Below, piece by piece: positions 37,036-44,384 of a stretch of 64,000 bases of DNA; position 1 is the stretch's first letter; every line of letters starts with the position of its first letter. Origin of the DNA: Streptacidiphilus rugosus AM-16 (GTDB lineage: Bacteria; Actinomycetota; Actinomycetes; Streptomycetales; Streptomycetaceae); NCBI RefSeq assembly GCF_000744655.1, contig NZ_JQMJ01000004.1, positions 2,480,001-2,544,000 on the forward strand, in the 5' to 3' direction. The notes under the pieces are model-generated. The model was given only the letters and a program-made list of their open reading frames with translations. It was not told the origin of the DNA and searched no databases. Position numbers and translations under genes: made by a program.

Positions 37036-37908
37036 ATGACTGATCCTCGTATCGGCGTGATGTTCGACCGCTCCTGGGACCCGGCCGGGTTGCCCGCCTT
37101 CGCGCGGGAGACGGAGCGGCTCGGGGCGGACGACCTCTGGGTGGTCGAGGACCTGGGCTGGAACGGCGGGATCTCGGCCGCGGCGGTCGCCCTCGGGGCG
37201 ACCGAACGGCTCCGGGTGGGTCTCGGCATCGCGCCCGCGCCGCTGCGCAGTCCGGCGCTGCTGGCGATGGAGGTCGCCACTCTGGCGCGGGTCCACCCCG
37301 GGCGCTTCGTGGCCGGGATCGGGCACGGGGTGCGGGAGTGGATGCAGCAGCTCGGCGTCGCGCCGCGTTCGCCGCTGGCGCTCCTGGAGGAGACCTTGAC
37401 CGCAGTGCGGGCGCTGCTGCGCGGCGAGGAGGTGAGTCTGGACGGGCGCGAGCTGCGCCTGGACGGCGTGCGGCTGGTGCACCCGCCCGCGCCGGAGGCG
37501 GTGCCGCCGGTGATCGCGGGCGTGGTCTCGCCGAAATCGCTGGAGCTGGCCGGACGCGCGGCACAGGGCACCCTCGTCGCCGAGGGCCACGGCCCGGACG
37601 ACCTGCGGAACGTCCGCGCGGCGGCGGAGCGCGGCGGCGCGGCCTCCGACCACGCGCTCACCGTCTTCGCCTTCCTCGGCGTCGGCGAGGCCGCAGCGCC
37701 CGCACTGCGCGAGGCCGTCGCCGGCCACGCCGACTGGCTCGGCCGGTGCCACAAGGACACCTTCTCCGTCTCCGGCTCCGCCGCCGAGGCCTCGGCGTCC
37801 GTCGACGCGCTGGCCGCGGCCGGGGCGGGGACCGTCGTCCTGCGTCCGTGCGGCCCCGACCCGCTCGCGCAGGTCGAGGCCGTCCTCTCGGCCAGGCGGG
37901 CCGGCTAG
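37036..37908 (+). CDS. LLM-class (luciferase-like, probably F420-dependent) oxidoreductase
   Basis: A 290-residue TIM-barrel flavin/F420 enzyme: DPRIGVMFDRSWDP at strand 1, DDLWVVEDLGWNGG, LGIAPAPLRSPALLAMEVATLARVHPGRFVAGIGHG, the family's most conserved stretch, and a C-terminal GAGTVVLRP. The substrate is unknown. The ATG at 37036 has no obvious Shine-Dalgarno sequence. Its stop overlaps the end of the convergent M20 gene by 4 bp. It begins the block inserted between the deaminase-like gene and CorC. Confidence 0.88.
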   Translation: MTDPRIGVMFDRSWDPAGLPAFARETERLGADDLWVVEDLGWNGGISAAAVALGATERLRVGLGIAPAPLRSPALLAMEVATLARVHPGRFVAGIGHGVREWMQQLGVAPRSPLALLEETLTAVRALLRGEEVSLDGRELRLDGVRLVHPPAPEAVPPVIAGVVSPKSLELAGRAAQGTLVAEGHGPDDLRNVRAAAERGGAASDHALTVFAFLGVGEAAAPALREAVAGHADWLGRCHKDTFSVSGSAAEASASVDALAAAGAGTVVLRPCGPDPLAQVEAVLSARRAG

Positions 37909-39116
37909 GCGGTGGCCTCCCGCTCCAGCCGGGCGATCGCCAGTCGGGCCAGCAGGGCCGCGCCGTCCGCGAGCACGGAGTCGTCGAAGAAGGCCTCAGG
38001 GGAGTGGTTGTAGGCGGCGGTGGTGTGGTCCCGGTCGGGCGGGCAGGCGCCGAGGAAGAAGTAGGCGGAGGGCACCTGCTCGCAGACGTAGGAGAAGTCC
38101 TCCGCACCGGTGAGCGGCTGCTCCATCGGGCGGAACCGGTCCTCGCCCAGCAGCTCGCGGACGGTCCGTGCGGCGAACTCCGCCTCCGTCGCGTCGTTGA
38201 CCGTCACCGGGTAGAGCCGCTCGTAGCGGGCGTCGACCTCCAGACCGTGCGCGGCGGCGACTCCGTGGACGACCCGCAGCGTCTCCTCCTCGGCGCGCGC
38301 CCGCGCCTCGGGCGAGAAGGTGCGGACGGTCGCCTCGAAGCAGGCGTCGTCGGGGATCACGTTGTTGATGGTGCCGCCGTGCAGGTGGCCCACCGTCAGC
38401 ACGACCGGGTCGAAGGCGTCGAAGCGGCGGGTCACCATCGTCTGCAGCGCCGTCACCGCCTCGCAGAGCGCGGGGATCGGATCGAGCGCGGCGTGCGGCG
38501 CGGAGCCGTGGCCGCCGCGTCCGCGCATGGTGACGTAGAGGGTGTCCGCCGCCGCCATCGCCGCGCCCGGACGGCCGGAGACCACGCCGCCGGGCAGCAG
38601 TCCGGCCACGACGTGCAGTCCGTACGCCGCGACCACCTGCGCACCCGCGGCGTCCAGCAGGCCCTCGTCCAGCATGATCTTCGCGCCGCCGCGGCCCTCC
38701 TCGCCGGGCTGGAACATGAAGACGACCGACCCGGCCAGCTCCTCCCGCCGCTCCGCCAGCAGCTTCGCCGCGCCGACCAGACCCGCCACATGCAGGTCGT
38801 GCCCACAGGCGTGCATCGCCCCGTCGATGCCCGACGCGAACGGCAACCCGCTCGTCTCCTGCACCGGCAACGCGTCCATGTCGCCACGCAACAGCACCGC
38901 AGGACCGGGCCGCCCACCCCGCAACACAGCGACGACACTGCTCAGCTTCTCCCCCAGCGCCACCTCGAGACCCAGACCGTCCAGCGCCGCCACCACCCGC
39001 GCCTGCGTCAACGGCAGATCCAGACCGATCTCCGGCTCCCGGTGCAGCTCTCGTCGCAGGGCGGCCAGCTCCGGCCGGAGCAGCGCGGCGGATTCCAGCA
39101 GCGTGGGTGTGGTCAT
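37905..39116 (-). CDS. M20-family amidohydrolase (paralogue A)
   Basis: A 403-residue metal-dependent amidohydrolase of the hippurate/IAA-amino-acid hydrolase group that would cleave N-acyl amino acids. The N-terminal catalytic half shows ELHREPEIG, GDMDALPVQE and the metal-binding HACGHDLHVAG, then GEEGRGGA. The dimerisation domain lies around 190-310, and SEDF-type GAEDFSYV near the C-terminus supplies the last metal ligand. The ATG at 39116 has GGGAGGA upstream. Residues 8-140 are encoded by DNA identical to the second M20 gene at 41706-42905. It follows the MFS gene on the same strand. Confidence 0.92.
   Translation of the reverse strand: MTTPTLLESAALLRPELAALRRELHREPEIGLDLPLTQARVVAALDGLGLEVALGEKLSSVVAVLRGGRPGPAVLLRGDMDALPVQETSGLPFASGIDGAMHACGHDLHVAGLVGAAKLLAERREELAGSVVFMFQPGEEGRGGAKIMLDEGLLDAAGAQVVAAYGLHVVAGLLPGGVVSGRPGAAMAAADTLYVTMRGRGGHGSAPHAALDPIPALCEAVTALQTMVTRRFDAFDPVVLTVGHLHGGTINNVIPDDACFEATVRTFSPEARARAEEETLRVVHGVAAAHGLEVDARYERLYPVTVNDATEAEFAARTVRELLGEDRFRPMEQPLTGAEDFSYVCEQVPSAYFFLGACPPDRDHTTAAYNHSPEAFFDDSVLADGAALLARLAIARLEREATA
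38694..39092 (-). repeat. 399-bp direct repeat, copy 1 (within M20 paralogue A)
   Basis: Identical base for base to 42486-42884 (offset 3,792 bp, same orientation and same codon register). A further 56-bp identical tract lies in register at 38392-38447 and 42184-42239. Outside these tracts the genes differ at many positions. Confidence 0.95.
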
Positions 39117-39140
39117 GGACGGTCCTCCCCGACGTGTTGA

Positions 39141-40520
39141 TCACACTGGTTGCTCCGAGGCTAGCCGCCCGGAGGCCGCCGCGGCAGAGGCCCCGCGCAG
39201 CGCCAGCGCCACCGGCACCCCGAGCGCGCAGAGCAGCGCGCAGGCCGCCCAGATCGCGACATAGGCTCCCTGGCTCGACACGCCGGGACGCAGCAGCAGC
39301 GTGTCCAGCACGGCCGCCCCGCCCGCGCCCGCCGCCGCGCCGGCCAGCGTCTTGAGGGTGTTGTAGACGCCCGTGCCGATGCCGGTCTGGTCGGCGGGCA
39401 GACGGCGCATCAACAGGCCGGGCAGCAGGCTGAGTCCGAGGCCCGCGCCGAAGCCGGCGAAGGCGCTGGGCGCGACGAAGGCGGCGGCGCTGCCGTGGTT
39501 CAGCGCGATCACCGCATAGCCGACCGCGCTCAGCGCGAAGCCGCAGGCCAGCACGGCGCGCGCGCCGAAACGGCGTCCGAGCCGGTCGGCGACCAGCGCG
39601 CCCGTCAGCGCGCCGAGCACCGCGGGGAGCGAGAGCAGTCCGAGAAGCTGCGAGTCCGCGCCGAGGCCGTAACCGGTCTTCACGGGGTCGGCCGCCTGGA
39701 AGGACAGGGTCGGCGACTGGGCGCCGTAGAGGGCGCAGCCGAGCAGGAAGCTGAGCCCGAAGACCGGCGCCGTCGCCCGCCGGGCGAGCATCCGCACGTC
39801 CACGGTCGGGGCGGGAACGCGCAGCTGCCTGCGGACGAAGAGGACCAGCAGCGCCGCCGCGCCCAGCAGCAGACCCCCCGTCAGCAGCACTCCGGTCGAC
39901 TTGCCGACACTGCTGAAGCTGCCGAAGAGCAGCCCGAGCCCGACGAAGAGCAGCAGCGCGCCGAGCCAGTCCATCCGCCCGACGGCGCGGGTCGCCGACT
40001 CCGGCACCCACAGCAGCACGACGACCAGCGACACGGCGGGAAGCGCCGCCATCACCCAGAGACCCGGACGGGTGACCGCGCCGACGATCGTGCCCAGCGT
40101 GAGCGAGCCGACCAGCAGCCCGACGGCGCGGCCTCCGCGCTCCTCGCCGAGCCGGTCGCGCAGCAGCGCGAACTCCAGCGGCAGCCAGCAGCTGAGCAGG
40201 CCCGCGAGCGCCTGCCCGACCAGCAGCAGCGCCAGGCCGGTGGCGGCGGCGGAGAGCACGTAGCCGACGCAGGTCAGCGCCAGAGTCGCCAGCAGCAGCC
40301 TGCGATGGCCGAAGAGGTCGCCGAGCCGGGAGCTGAGCGGCACCGTCACCCCCGCGACCAGGAAGTTCACCCCGAGCACCAGGGCTTGGTCGCCGGCGCC
40401 GAAGCCGAGGGACCTGGCCAGGTCGGGCAGCAGGATCGGGAAGGCGCCCTGGAGCGCCCCGCTGAAGAACTCCACCAGCACGAGCAGCCCGATGAGTGGT
40501 GCGCGGGAAAGGCGAGGCAT
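39141..40520 (-). CDS. MFS transporter, DHA2-like
   Basis: A membrane transporter of about 459 residues with 12-14 hydrophobic helices. The first helix (LIGLLVLVEFFSGALQGAFPILLP) and motif A (SSRLGDLFGHRRLLL) place it in the drug-efflux-like MFS. The ATG at 40520 is used; an in-frame GTG at 40526 is equally placed, and neither has a good ribosome-binding site. It is divergent from the AsnC gene and upstream of M20 paralogue A (24 bp), suggesting joint control. It may move the substrates or products of the amidohydrolases. Confidence 0.85.
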   Translation of the reverse strand: MPRLSRAPLIGLLVLVEFFSGALQGAFPILLPDLARSLGFGAGDQALVLGVNFLVAGVTVPLSSRLGDLFGHRRLLLATLALTCVGYVLSAAATGLALLLVGQALAGLLSCWLPLEFALLRDRLGEERGGRAVGLLVGSLTLGTIVGAVTRPGLWVMAALPAVSLVVVLLWVPESATRAVGRMDWLGALLLFVGLGLLFGSFSSVGKSTGVLLTGGLLLGAAALLVLFVRRQLRVPAPTVDVRMLARRATAPVFGLSFLLGCALYGAQSPTLSFQAADPVKTGYGLGADSQLLGLLSLPAVLGALTGALVADRLGRRFGARAVLACGFALSAVGYAVIALNHGSAAAFVAPSAFAGFGAGLGLSLLPGLLMRRLPADQTGIGTGVYNTLKTLAGAAAGAGGAAVLDTLLLRPGVSSQGAYVAIWAACALLCALGVPVALALRGASAAAASGRLASEQPV

Positions 40521-40617
40521 GGGCACATCCGGATGTCGGCGCGCGAAGCGGCGCGGGGCGTCGGGTGGGCGAAAGGATGGCTAATCTGGGTGGCCCGGAG
40601 CCGCCGCCGCACGAATC

Positions 40618-40631
40618 GGCAGCCGGCTGCC
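40618..40631. promoter_or_regulatory. Palindrome in the MFS/AsnC divergent promoter
   Basis: A 14-bp perfect palindrome GGCAGCCGGCTGCC, 29 bp before the AsnC start. Nearby, GGATGGCTAAT (from 40576) and the complement of TCAGCCATTCC form a looser inverted pair. These are candidate sites for the AsnC regulator. Confidence 0.4.
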
Positions 40632-40659
40632 CCCGCGCGCAAGGATCAGCCATTCCGCC

Positions 40660-41700
40660 ATGATCGACGAACTCGACCTCTCCCTCGTCGACGCGCTGCG
40701 CGTCGACCCGCGGGCGTCCTGGTCCCGGCTGGCCGGACCGCTCGGCGTCGATCCCGCCACCCTGTCCCGGCGCTGGGCCCGGCTCTCCGGCGACGGAGAC
40801 GCCTGGGTGACCTGCTACCCCTCGGCCGAGCGGATGGGGATCGGGCTGACCGCCCTGGTCCTGGTCGAGTGTCGGGCCGACTCCGTCCCCTCGGTCGCGG
40901 CGACGCTGGCCGAGGACCCGCAGACCCCGACGGTCGAGGTGATCAGCGGCGAGGCGGACCTGATGCTGACGGTCGCCGCGCTGGAGCCCGAGCAGATCAC
41001 CGGCTACGTGCTGGACCGGGTCGGCCGGGTGCCCGGCGTGCTGCGCACCCGCACCGCCTTCGTGGAGCGCACCCTGCGCGAGGGCAGTCGTTGGCGCGAG
41101 GGCGCGCTGGACCCGGCGCAGCGCGAGGCGATCGGCGGCGCCGGTGCCACCGTGCAGGCGGCACCGGCGGAGCAGGCCCTGCGGGCCACCCTGGCCCGGC
41201 GCGCGCTCGCCGACCGCACACTGATGCAGGCGCTGGGCGCGGACGGCCGGATGTCCTTCGCCGGACTCGCCGAACGCACCGGCCTGCCCGCCACCACCGT
41301 GCGCCGCAGGCTCGGCGAGCTGCGCGAGTCCGGACGTCTGGTGCTGCGCTGCGACGCGAGCCCGCGGCTCGGCGGGCACGTGGTCGGCACGATGCTCTGG
41401 CTGGACGTCCCGGCGCGTGAGCTGGACGCCGCGACGGGCTGGCTGGGCGAGCTGCCCGCCACCAGGATGTGCGGCCTGGTGGCGGGCTCGACGGCGAACG
41501 TGGCCGCCTATGTGATGACCCACCAGGTCGGGGACGCCCGGCGGATCGAGGCCGCAATGGCGCAGCGCTTCCCCGCCGCCCGGGTGGTGGGGCGTCAGGT
41601 CACGCTGCGCACGGTGAAACTGGTCGGCCGGCTGCTCGACCCTGACGGCCGCGCGAACGGCTACGTCCCGATCGACCCCTGGCAGACCGGCCAGGCCTGA
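40660..41700 (+). CDS. Lrp/AsnC-family regulator with two tandem units
   Basis: A 346-residue protein that is two AsnC monomers end to end. The first helix-turn-helix (ELDLSLVDALRVDPRASWSRLAGPLGVDPATLSRR, 4-38) is followed by a ligand-binding RAM-like domain (about 60-150). A second helix-turn-helix (RTLMQALGADGRMSFAGLAERTGLPATTVRRR, about 184-216) and a second RAM-like domain follow. Single-unit Lrp proteins are about 150 residues. It is divergent from the MFS gene, and its stop is 5 bp from the end of M20 paralogue B. It probably senses an amino acid and controls the flanking MFS and M20 genes. Confidence 0.9.
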   Translation: MIDELDLSLVDALRVDPRASWSRLAGPLGVDPATLSRRWARLSGDGDAWVTCYPSAERMGIGLTALVLVECRADSVPSVAATLAEDPQTPTVEVISGEADLMLTVAALEPEQITGYVLDRVGRVPGVLRTRTAFVERTLREGSRWREGALDPAQREAIGGAGATVQAAPAEQALRATLARRALADRTLMQALGADGRMSFAGLAERTGLPATTVRRRLGELRESGRLVLRCDASPRLGGHVVGTMLWLDVPARELDAATGWLGELPATRMCGLVAGSTANVAAYVMTHQVGDARRIEAAMAQRFPAARVVGRQVTLRTVKLVGRLLDPDGRANGYVPIDPWQTGQA

Positions 41701-41705
41701 ACCGC

Positions 41706-42905
41706 TCAGCCCCGCGCGAGCCGCCCCAGCGCCAGCCCGGCCAGCAGCGCCGCGCCGTCGGCCACGACCGCGTCGTCGAACGCCGCCTCGGGGGCGTGGT
41801 TGTAGGGCGCGGTGAACGGATCGCGGTCCGCCGGGCAGGCGCCGAGCATCACGTACGCCGAGGGCACCAGCGCGCCGACCACGCCGAAGTCCTCCGAGCC
41901 CGCGACCGCGTGCGGCATCTCGACATAACGCCCCTCCCCCAGCACCTCCGCGACCGTGCGGGCGGCGAACGCCGCCTCGGCGTGGTCGTTGACGGTGACC
42001 GGGTACCCGCTCTCCAGCTCCGCCTCGACGGTGAGCCCGTGCGCCGCCCCGACGCCGTGCACGACGCGCAGCGTCTCCTCCGCGACGCGGGCGCGCGCCT
42101 CCTCGGAGAAGGACCGGATGGTGGCGGCGAAGCTCGCCGTCTCCGGGATGACGTTCTCCACGGTGCCCGCGTGGAAGGTGCCGACCGTCAGCACGACCGG
42201 GTCGAAGGCGTCGAAGCGGCGGGTCACCATCGTCTGCAGGGCGAGCACCGCCTCGCAGGCCGCCGGCACCGGGTCGAGGGCGATGTGCGGGCTGGAACCG
42301 TGGCCGCCGCGCCCCCGCAGGGTCACCCGCAGGGTGTCCGAGGCGGCCATGATCGGGCCGGGGCGCCCGGCGACCCAGCCCTGCGGCAGCAGCGCCGACG
42401 CGACGTGCAGGGCGTACGCGGCGACCACACGCTCACCCGCCGCGTCCAGCACCCCTTCGTCGATCATGATCTGGGCGCCGCCGGAGCCCTCCTCGCCGGG
42501 CTGGAACATGAAGACGACCGACCCGGCCAGCTCCTCCCGCCGCTCCGCCAGCAGCTTCGCCGCGCCGACCAGACCCGCCACATGCAGGTCGTGCCCACAG
42601 GCGTGCATCGCCCCGTCGATGCCCGACGCGAACGGCAACCCGCTCGTCTCCTGCACCGGCAACGCGTCCATGTCGCCACGCAACAGCACCGCAGGACCGG
42701 GCCGCCCACCCCGCAACACAGCGACGACACTGCTCAGCTTCTCCCCCAGCGCCACCTCGAGACCCAGACCGTCCAGCGCCGCCACCACCCGCGCCTGCGT
42801 CAACGGCAGATCCAGACCGATCTCCGGCTCCCGGTGCAGCTCTCGTCGCAGGGCGGCCAGCTCCGGCCGGAGCAGCGCGGCGGACTCGGCAAGGGTGGGC
42901 GACAT
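41706..42905 (-). CDS. M20-family amidohydrolase (paralogue B)
   Basis: A 399-residue amidohydrolase with the same layout as paralogue A: identical N-terminal catalytic half including HACGHDLHVAG, then GEEGSGGA, and a diverged second half ending in AGSEDFGVVG with the C-terminal metal ligand. The ATG at 42905 has GGAG 6 nt upstream; a start at 42941 is less likely. Two paralogues with different substrate-contacting halves suggest related but distinct N-acyl amino-acid substrates. Confidence 0.92.
   Translation of the reverse strand: MSPTLAESAALLRPELAALRRELHREPEIGLDLPLTQARVVAALDGLGLEVALGEKLSSVVAVLRGGRPGPAVLLRGDMDALPVQETSGLPFASGIDGAMHACGHDLHVAGLVGAAKLLAERREELAGSVVFMFQPGEEGSGGAQIMIDEGVLDAAGERVVAAYALHVASALLPQGWVAGRPGPIMAASDTLRVTLRGRGGHGSSPHIALDPVPAACEAVLALQTMVTRRFDAFDPVVLTVGTFHAGTVENVIPETASFAATIRSFSEEARARVAEETLRVVHGVGAAHGLTVEAELESGYPVTVNDHAEAAFAARTVAEVLGEGRYVEMPHAVAGSEDFGVVGALVPSAYVMLGACPADRDPFTAPYNHAPEAAFDDAVVADGAALLAGLALGRLARG
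42486..42884 (-). repeat. 399-bp direct repeat, copy 2 (within M20 paralogue B)
   Basis: Partner of 38694-39092. Identity begins and ends abruptly: single mismatches at 42485 and 42885 bound it. Confidence 0.95.
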
Positions 42906-43037
42906 CGGCGTCTCCTCAGGGGACCAGGGATGGTGCCCCATCGTCGGACGCCGGACGGGCGCTGTCGCGCCGACGCACGGATCGACCGCCCCACGCCGCC
43001 GCGCGCACGGATCAGCCGCGCCCGGGTGTACCCGTCC

Positions 43038-44384
43038 CTAGTCCGACTCGGGCCGCAGCTCCGACTCGTCGGGCTCGTCGTGGCGCGAGCTCCGCGGGAC
43101 CGCGGAGGCGAGCAGCGTCCCGATGCGGTTGCGGCGGCCGGCTGTGCTCTCGGCCGTCAGGCGGATCGCCGCGATGGGGAGTTCGTCGTCCTCGGGGACC
43201 GGGACCTCGGCGTCGGATCCGGGGATCGGGACGCGGCCGAGCGCCTTGGCCAGCAGGCCGCCGACCGTCTCGACGTCTTCGTCCTCCAGTTCTATGCCGA
43301 AGAGCTCGCCCAGCTCCTCCACCGGAAGCCGCGCCGTGATCCGGTACGAGCCGTCCGCCAGCGGTTCCACCGGCGGCGTCTCGCGGTCGTACTCGTCGGT
43401 GATCTCGCCGACGATCTCCTCCAGGATGTCCTCGATGGTCACCAGGCCCGCCGTGCCGCCGTACTCGTCGATCACGACCGCGACGTGGATCCGGTCCCGC
43501 TGCATCTCCCGCAGCAGGTCGGCCACGGGCTTGCTGTCGGGGACGAAGGTCGCCGCCCGCATCACCTGGCCGACCGGCTCGCTCTCCGCGTCACGGTTCG
43601 CGTGGGTCCGACGGACCAGGTCCTTCAGGTAGGCGATGCCGACGACGTCGTCCTCGTTCTCGCCCACCACCGGGATCCGGGAGAAACCGCTCCGCAGCGC
43701 CAGGGTCAGCGTCTGCCGCACGGTCTTGCCGCGCTCGATCATCACCAGGTCGGTGCGCGGCACCATCACCTCGCGCACGATGGTGTCGCCCAGCTCGAAG
43801 ACCGAGTGCACCATCCGGCGCTCCTCGTCCTCGATCAGGTCGTCCTTCTCGGCCAGGTCCACCAGCGCCCGCAGCTCCGCCTCCGAGGCGAAGGGGCCCT
43901 CACGGAAGCCCTTGCCCGGCGTCAGCGCGTTGCCGAGCAGGATCAGCAGGCGCGGGATCGGCCCCATCACCCTGGCCAGCGGCAGCAGCACGAAGGAGCC
44001 GGCCGTGGCCGAGTTCAGCGGGTGCTGCCGCCCGATCGTGCGCGGCGAGACGCCGACCGCGACGAAGGAGACCAGCACCATCGCCCCGATCGCGACCAGC
44101 ACCGCCTGCCAGGTCTCGTGGAAGCTGCGCACGCAGACCACGGTGACCAGCACCGCCGCCGCCATCTCACAGGTGACCCGGATCAGGGTCGCCAGGTTCA
44201 GGTAGGTGATCGGGTCGCTCGCCATGGCGAGCAGCCGCTCGGAGCCGCGACGGCCGGCCCGGACCGCCTCCTCGGCGCGGAAGCGCGAAACGCGCGAGAT
44301 GCCCGCCTCGGCGCAGGCGGCGAGCCACGCGCAGATGACGAGCAGCACCGCCCCGACGAGGAAGCTGGTACTACTGCCGCTCAT
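43038..44384 (-). CDS. CNNM/CBS-domain membrane protein (CorC/HlyC family)
   Basis: A 448-residue protein with an N-terminal DUF21/CNNM membrane domain (three to four helices in residues 5-145), a CBS pair (REVMVPRTDLVMIERG, then GIAYLKDL and DRIHVAVVIDEYGGTAGLVTIEDILEEIVGEI), and a C-terminal CorC_HlyC domain (SYRITARLPVEELGELFGIELED, about 350-420). The family is linked to magnesium or cobalt export. The start at 44384 lies 14 bp behind ybeY, and together with phoH these form a conserved operon. Confidence 0.93.
   Translation of the reverse strand: MSGSSTSFLVGAVLLVICAWLAACAEAGISRVSRFRAEEAVRAGRRGSERLLAMASDPITYLNLATLIRVTCEMAAAVLVTVVCVRSFHETWQAVLVAIGAMVLVSFVAVGVSPRTIGRQHPLNSATAGSFVLLPLARVMGPIPRLLILLGNALTPGKGFREGPFASEAELRALVDLAEKDDLIEDEERRMVHSVFELGDTIVREVMVPRTDLVMIERGKTVRQTLTLALRSGFSRIPVVGENEDDVVGIAYLKDLVRRTHANRDAESEPVGQVMRAATFVPDSKPVADLLREMQRDRIHVAVVIDEYGGTAGLVTIEDILEEIVGEITDEYDRETPPVEPLADGSYRITARLPVEELGELFGIELEDEDVETVGGLLAKALGRVPIPGSDAEVPVPEDDELPIAAIRLTAESTAGRRNRIGTLLASAVPRSSRHDEPDESELRPESD

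What the first reader, a model, noticed from the sequence alone, without database searches (positions are those of the whole stretch)
38694..42884. 399-bp perfectly identical tract shared in register by two diverged M20 amidohydrolase genes
38694-39092 and 42486-42884 are identical base for base and bounded by single mismatches. A second in-register identical tract of 56 bp lies at 38392-38447 / 42184-42239. The rest of the genes differ at many codons, including silent sites. This mosaic points to recent gene conversion that homogenised the catalytic half while leaving the substrate-facing half divergent. The 3.8-kb direct repeat also brackets the MFS and AsnC genes. Recombination between the copies would delete both and leave one chimeric amidohydrolase.
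Basis: seen in the sequence. Interest (0 to 1): 0.72.

Follow-up and report, generated by a model that had tools for sequence, protein, structure and literature searches.

The report
Twin enzyme genes repeatedly sharing one third
Two neighbouring enzyme genes in a soil bacterium have a front third that is kept almost identical by repeated copying from one gene to the other while the rest stays different; this happened separately in at least six related species with nearly the same stopping point, and in one relative the pair has collapsed into a single hybrid gene.

Summary
38694-39092 and 42486-42884 are identical over 399 bp, and a second 56-bp tract is identical too. Behind the tract the genes differ at 200 of 777 bases.

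Gene conversion is supported, and it is not a single event. Of 14 held genomes of the genus, 11 carry both genes. In the eight intact pairs the first ~141 codons are 82.7-100% identical within a genome; the rest is 72-76%. In six of eight, the front segment of A is sister to its own B, while the back segment groups with the A genes of other species. In seven of eight the fitted tract ends between codons 137 and 145.

The predicted deletion product exists in relative G011: one gene with B's 5' flank and A's C-terminal part, and no match at the cut-offs used to MFS, AsnC or B's C-terminal part in that assembly.

The process is known: concerted evolution by interlocus conversion. Confinement to one third of a bacterial gene, with a shared boundary, is the new variant. 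Whether selection, an inherited identity cliff or both fix the boundary is open.

The parts
37905..39116 (-). gene A: M20 amidohydrolase (TIGR01891 subfamily), downstream of the MFS gene on the same strand
   Evidence: Pfam PF01546 and PF07687, NCBIfam TIGR01891 305 bits against cut-off 153.75
41706..42941 (-). gene B: M20 amidohydrolase paralogue; the true start may be the internal ATG at about 42905, by comparison with orthologues
   Evidence: PF01546, PF07687, TIGR01891 309 bits; starts compared
38694..39092 (-). 399-bp identical tract, copy in A (codons 9-141)
42486..42884 (-). 399-bp identical tract, copy in B
38392..38447 (-). 56-bp identical island in A (about codons 224-242, inside the dimerisation domain)
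   Evidence: matching-run permutation p 0.0024, uncorrected
42184..42239 (-). 56-bp identical island in B
39141..40526 (-). MFS transporter, 24 bp upstream of A on the same strand
   Evidence: PF07690
40660..41700 (+). Lrp/AsnC-type regulator with two HTH regions, divergent from MFS-A and convergent with B
   Evidence: PF13404, PF13412, PF01037
37036..37908 (+). luciferase-like monooxygenase flanking the pair (its 3' end overlaps that of A)
   Evidence: PF00296; synteny
43038..44384 (-). CNNM/CorC-type transporter, conserved flank on the B side
   Evidence: PF01595, PF00571, PF03471; synteny

Best explanation
A and B are old M20-type amidohydrolase paralogues that differ by about 26% over most of their length. 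Homologous recombination between the two direct repeats, 3.8 kb apart, copies the first ~141 codons non-reciprocally from one gene to the other, again and again, independently in lineages of this genus (the repeated homogenisation is shown from sequence; recombination as the agent is inferred). The 5' end of the tract is where homology begins, at the start of the gene. The 3' end, at codons 137-145, is a step in similarity that is also present in a lineage without recent conversion (G005), so later exchanges may stop there because the partners beyond it are too different; probably selection also keeps the C-terminal two thirds (lid/dimer domain and the second half of the catalytic domain) distinct because A and B differ in substrate or in pairing (both inferred). 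A conserved stretch inside the divergent part, codons 217-244, still seems to get converted in some genomes. Crossing over instead of conversion between the repeats deletes MFS, AsnC and the inner gene parts and leaves a chimera of B's upstream region and A's C-terminal part, as seen in G011.
For: Identity of A and B within a genome by segment, N / C: G000 100/74.1, G006 99.2/73.5, G002 99.0/73.9, G010 98.7/76.0, G013 95.7/75.9, G004 90.5/74.2, G005 85.5/72.2, G001 82.7/73.3; plus G007 98/76 from an error-rich assembly and G009 97.7-99.6/75 from split contigs. N segments of the other species compared reach at most 84% with G000. N tree: A is sister to its own B in 6 of 8 pairs (five with starred support, G000 identical); C tree: all A rows together. 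Holding the nine A rows together in N is rejected (p 2e-62); holding own pairs together in C is rejected in 6 of 6 tested (p 4e-5 or less). Fitted tract 3' ends at codons 141, 145, 137, 141, 141, 145, 145 for G000, G002, G006, G010, G013, G004, G005. In six genomes, mean within-genome A-B identity is 93-100% in each 12-codon window from codon 13 to 144; from 145 on it is within 5 points of the identity of A and B taken from different genomes. Synteny keeps A and B as separate orthologous loci. G011 chimera: 5' flank 92% to G006 B and 69% to G006 A; C part 93% to G006 A and 73% to G006 B; no MFS match at E 1e-60, no AsnC match at E 1e-40, and no second gene of this locus in that genome.
Against: In G001 and G005 the N segments of A and B are 82.7 and 85.5% alike and not sisters in the N tree, so conversion is not obligatory; in G001 the change-point fit picks codons 210-239, not the N tract; for G004 and G005 the 3' end is poorly fixed (codons 142-157 and 136-148). 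The A clade in the C tree has modest support (89/66), and six N-tree rows, four of them from two converted genomes (G002, G006), have unusual base make-up. The groups given to the AU tests were chosen after the identities were seen. G004's assembly is listed with 10% contamination. The cause of the boundary is not settled. The donor is not settled: for G010/G013, grouping with A-type rows is not rejected (p 0.14) and grouping with B-type rows is (p 0.016, uncorrected); for the G000 group, grouping with the A rows of G001/G005/G012 is rejected (p 0.0004). No substrate is known for A or B.
Confidence: 0.85

Rival explanations
1. Inherited identity cliff, no selection: an early conversion or a chimeric origin of A made only the first third alike, and later exchanges are confined to it simply because recombination needs near-identity. 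(A variant of the best explanation: it concerns the boundary, not the conversion.)
For: The step is at about the same place in G005, where A and B N segments are only 85.5% alike (interval codons 136-148), so there it predates any recent event. The C part is at 72-76% in all eight intact pairs.
Against: Matching runs in the C part at codons 217-244 in four of nine genomes suggest that exchange can start there; residues 337-360 are more alike among A and among B than between them, which suggests separate constraints.
Confidence: 0.45
2. Selection sieve: conversions fall anywhere, but those that overwrite C-terminal specificity residues are lost. (Also a variant concerning the boundary.)
For: Nine positions separate A from B rows (11 A, 26 B rows; seven without shared residues, two at 90% or more), all after codon 141; the island at 217-244 lies between two of them (206 and 301).
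Against: The absence of such positions in N is expected from homogenisation alone. No enzyme data exist.
Confidence: 0.4
3. Strong purifying selection on the N-terminal part, no conversion.
For: The segment carries conserved motifs, and between genomes A-B identity is on the whole higher in N than in C windows.
Against: 0 of 133 codons differ silently within G000, while N segments of the other species compared differ from it by about 16% or more.
Confidence: 0.01
4. Assembly artefact: one copy of the tract was placed at both sites.
For: Such tracts do break assemblies: contigs of G009 end inside it.
Against: The flanks are unique, the genome has 4 contigs, and two single-contig relatives show 98.7 and 95.7% rather than 100%.
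Confidence: 0.03
5. A recombination hot spot or stop signal lies at the boundary (QPGEEG codons).
For: Seven of eight fitted 3' ends fall within nine codons.
Against: No signal was searched for; in the Salmonella tuf system conversion starts effectively uniformly along the gene (PMC5485169, summary and passages).
Confidence: 0.08

Closest known systems
Long-lasting recurrent concerted evolution in prokaryotes (tuf, amoABC, psbA and others; Wang and Chen 2018, PMC6053082)
   Same: Paralogues in a genome more alike than orthologues, at silent sites too, with synteny evidence, recurrent in five or more species (abstract, passages and section 6 seen).
   Different: [quoted passage not shown] here only about one third is homogenised and the rest stays at 72-76%.
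Salmonella tuf gene conversion (PMC5485169)
   Same: Non-reciprocal transfer between two copies on one chromosome, limited by the end of homology (summary and passages).
   Different: There conversion starts effectively uniformly and is bounded by the gene; here it stops inside the gene.
Teshima-Innan signature of neofunctionalisation under conversion (as described in PMC2588116)
   Same: Locally high divergence kept within otherwise homogenised duplicates (passages).
   Different: Applied there to fly duplicates; here a bacterial pair, with the divergent part larger than the converted part and the selection step not shown.
YxeP (1ysj) and ILL2 (1xmb) M20 amidohydrolases
   Same: Closest solved relatives of A by sequence (E 2e-69 and 2e-65).
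   Different: No substrate is inferred for A or B from this.

Membership tests
Concerted evolution by interlocus gene conversion | Paralogues in one genome closer than orthologues, with conserved synteny | tested here: met
   N segment: 6 of 8 pairs sister in the tree, G001 and G005 not; synteny; not met in the C segment
Concerted evolution by interlocus gene conversion | Homogenised at silent sites | tested here: met
   in G000 0 of 133 codons differ in the tract, 55 of 180 same-residue codons differ behind it
Long-lasting prokaryotic concerted evolution of PMC6053082 | Identity across nearly the full gene length | tested here: not met
   C segment 72-76% in all eight intact pairs
Long-lasting prokaryotic concerted evolution of PMC6053082 | Seen in at least five species | tested here: met
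   six pairs sister by genome in the N segment, plus G007 and G009 by identity
M20 amidohydrolase subfamily TIGR01891 | Score above the curated cut-off | tested here: met
   305 and 309 bits against 153.75
Carboxypeptidase CpsA (NF040868) | Score above the curated cut-off | tested here: not met
   327 and 311 bits against 500
N-acetyl-diaminobutanoate deacetylase DoeB2 (NF038260) | Score above the curated cut-off | tested here: not met
   250 and 249 bits against 550
M20 amidohydrolase | Hydrolysis of an N-acyl or amide substrate | not testable with these tools
   needs an enzyme assay

The most novel reading that the evidence does not exclude
The pair is maintained as two enzymes that share one interchangeable front module: continual conversion keeps the module identical in each species while selection removes every conversion that crosses codon ~145, so the boundary marks the start of the specificity-determining part; the same recombination occasionally collapses the locus into a rewired chimera (B's upstream region, A's specificity).
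Probability: 0.4. Interest if true: 0.62.

Novelty: new variant of a known kind. Interest (0 to 1): 0.5.

Why it matters
It gives a natural replicate series, at least six independent conversions with nearly one boundary plus one natural deletion product, with which to ask what stops gene conversion inside a gene: lost homology or selection for different functions. It also shows a part-gene form of concerted evolution that whole-gene scans may miss (inference), and a repeat at which at least one relative's assembly breaks (G009).

Tried and rejected
Purifying selection as sole cause was rejected on silent sites. Recent re-duplication was rejected because the C parts and the flanking genes keep A and B as separate orthologous loci. 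Mis-assembly is disfavoured. The donor of the N tract could not be fixed. G001 does not show the N tract in the change-point fit, and G003 (B only) and G012 (A only) have no pair at this locus. The second island is weaker: permutation p 0.002-0.009 in G000, G002, G010 and G013, uncorrected for nine genomes, and not significant in G006, G004, G005, G001 or G008; 1 of 72 between-genome control pairs has a run of 19, as long as two of the four (19, 20, 20, 19), though at another place; and the island hardly shows in the window means. A structure prediction was not run: I judged that without coordinates in the Python box it would not give distances to the active site. A YxeK-YxeP-like salvage role (luciferase-like monooxygenase next to an M20 hydrolase) is a recalled lead only; one search listed a single paper, which I did not read. 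Paper searches on conversion between paralogues listed no such case for M20 genes or this genus in the titles and abstract starts shown; that is not proof of absence. Of PMC9205934 (assembly-line biosynthesis) I saw three passages; they mention homogenisation by gene conversion but no comparable pair.

Rows dropped before counts: G008 (5' halves read as N) from the N tree, and its one- or two-codon N values were ignored; G007 (error-rich assembly, 76% complete) and G009 (genes split over contigs) from trees, change points and run tests, reported by identity only; G245 served as outgroup and was left out of the A/B position count. The 12-codon window means use six genomes, the pairs sister in the N tree. 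The 13 non-genus rows added are a choice from its 64 matching genomes outside the genus, and 80 of 593 relatives were kept, of which I used few.
Full report
OBSERVATION. The two stated tracts are identical (399 and 56 bp, offset 3792) and end at mismatches. Behind the tract the two coding sequences differ at 200 of 777 bases; in the tract 0 of 133 codons differ. In the 9.0-Mb, 4-contig genome the tract is found at these two places; the only further match listed is 56 bp at 78%.

LOCUS. On the minus strand lie B (41706-42941) and, further on, MFS (39141-40526) followed after 24 bp by A (37905-39116). A regulator of the Lrp/AsnC type (40660-41700, plus strand) diverges from MFS-A and converges on B. 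Both A and B score as TIGR01891-type M20 amidohydrolases with an M20 dimerisation domain. Neither reaches the cut-off of the CpsA or DoeB2 models. From the arrangement, A is probably co-transcribed with MFS under AsnC control, and B has its own promoter (inference). The order Era, deaminase-like gene, luciferase-like monooxygenase, A, MFS, AsnC, B, CorC, YbeY, PhoH is kept in the genus with losses and insertions. In related genera a B-AsnC-MFS unit without an adjacent A occurs: in 3 of 3 genomes of one genus of the same order, and in 8 of the 22 loci, all eight among the 13 taken from other genera of the same family as rows for the trees. So the unit is probably older and A looks like an addition in this genus (inference).

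GENUS. 

RECURRENCE. All 14 held genomes of the genus were searched. Eleven have both genes at this locus; G003 has B only, G012 A only, G011 one gene. In the eight intact pairs the front segment (codons 9-141 of A) is 100, 99.2, 99.0, 98.7, 95.7, 90.5, 85.5 and 82.7% identical within the genome (G000, G006, G002, G010, G013, G004, G005, G001), and the rest 72-76%. G007 (error-rich) gives 98 against 76. G009, whose contigs end inside the tract, gives 97.7-99.6 over 174-262 bp against 75. In G008 both front halves read as N, so it cannot be scored. N segments of the other species compared reach at most 84% with G000. G002 and G006, which are about 90% alike in N, each have their A and B at 99%, so their latest conversions are separate. 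The opposite holds in G001 and G005: their A genes are 92% and their B genes 93% alike in N, but A and B within each only 83 and 86%.

TREES. With 36 rows, the N tree joins A with its own B in G000, G002, G004, G006, G010 and G013, not in G001 and G005. The C tree, with 38 rows, puts all A rows together (support 89/66, not starred). Six rows of the N tree have unusual base make-up. Forcing the nine A rows together in N is rejected (p 2e-62), and forcing own pairs together in C is rejected in all six genomes tested (p 4e-5 or less); these groups were named after the identities had been seen.

BOUNDARY. A two-rate change-point fit ends the tract at codon 141 (G000), 145 (G002), 137 (G006), 141 (G010), 141 (G013), 145 (G004, interval 142-157) and 145 (G005, interval 136-148); G001 does not fit. 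In 12-codon windows over the six genomes whose pairs are sisters, mean within-genome A-B identity is 93-100% from codon 13 to 144; in every later window it is within 5 points of that of A and B taken from different genomes. Matching runs at codons 217-244 are longer than shuffles allow in G000, G002, G010 and G013 (p 0.002-0.009, uncorrected), not in five other genomes, and 1 of 72 between-genome control pairs has a run of 19, at codons 162-172. So a second, small, recurrent conversion site is likely but less secure.

FUNCTION. Nine positions separate 11 A rows from 26 B rows (seven without shared residues, two at 90% or more), all after codon 141; homogenisation alone would remove such positions from N. 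The front third holds the HACGHD and GEEG motifs; the YGLHV and NHSPE motifs lie behind it. That these are metal-binding motifs is family knowledge, recalled.

DELETION PRODUCT. G011 has one gene between the monooxygenase and CorC. Its C part is 93% identical to A of G006 and 73% to B. Its 5' flank is 92% identical to that of B of G006 (242 aligned bases) and 69% to that of A, and the sequence further upstream aligns with the B side. MFS has no match at E 1e-60 and AsnC none at E 1e-40 in that 99%-complete genome, and its only other match to B at E 1e-60 is a 63% homologue elsewhere. It is a 150-contig assembly, so reads should confirm it.

MECHANISM. Shown: repeated homogenisation of the same segment, and one genome with the expected deletion structure. 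Inferred: homologous recombination between the direct repeats as the agent, and the reason for the boundary. A step at about the same place in G005, where A and B fronts are only 86% alike, suits an inherited identity cliff. Separate constraint on A and B at codons 337-360 suits selection. The donor is open: grouping the G000 rows with the A rows of G001, G005 and G012 is rejected (p 0.0004), while for G010/G013 the A-type grouping is not rejected (p 0.14) and the B-type grouping is (p 0.016, uncorrected).

COMPARISON. The prokaryotic catalogue of PMC6053082 (abstract, passages, section 6) lists 26 genes, none of them an M20 hydrolase, alike over nearly the full gene length. Part-gene divergence maintained under conversion is a known theoretical signature (passages of PMC2588116). 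I therefore class this as a new variant of a known kind. The searches used listed no report of this pair.

Noticed in passing
L122 and L123 (G009 contigs C53 and C35): In G009 (probably S. jiangxiensis) most of the A gene with about 4.1 kb beyond its 3' end, which carries a permease-like ORF and an FAD amine-oxidase-like ORF (names by eye, not searched), is present on two contigs at 97.4% identity over 5184 bp, so the repeat may also drive duplication.
   Followed up: partly
L127:9034-13852: In G011 the B-side flank holds ORFs that look like a helix-turn-helix regulator, a TetR-like regulator, a dehydrogenase, another MFS transporter and an AraC-like regulator (names by eye from the translations); part of this stretch is shared with G006.
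   Followed up: no
window:36956-37564 and neighbours: Many long ORFs on the strand opposite the likely genes, as expected at 72% G+C; they were not taken as genes.
   Followed up: no
C-segment tree, B rows: B genes of two genomes of another family of the same order (G045, G047) group with the B gene of this genome in the C tree (98/94), which hints at transfer of the B-AsnC-MFS unit between families.
   Followed up: partly
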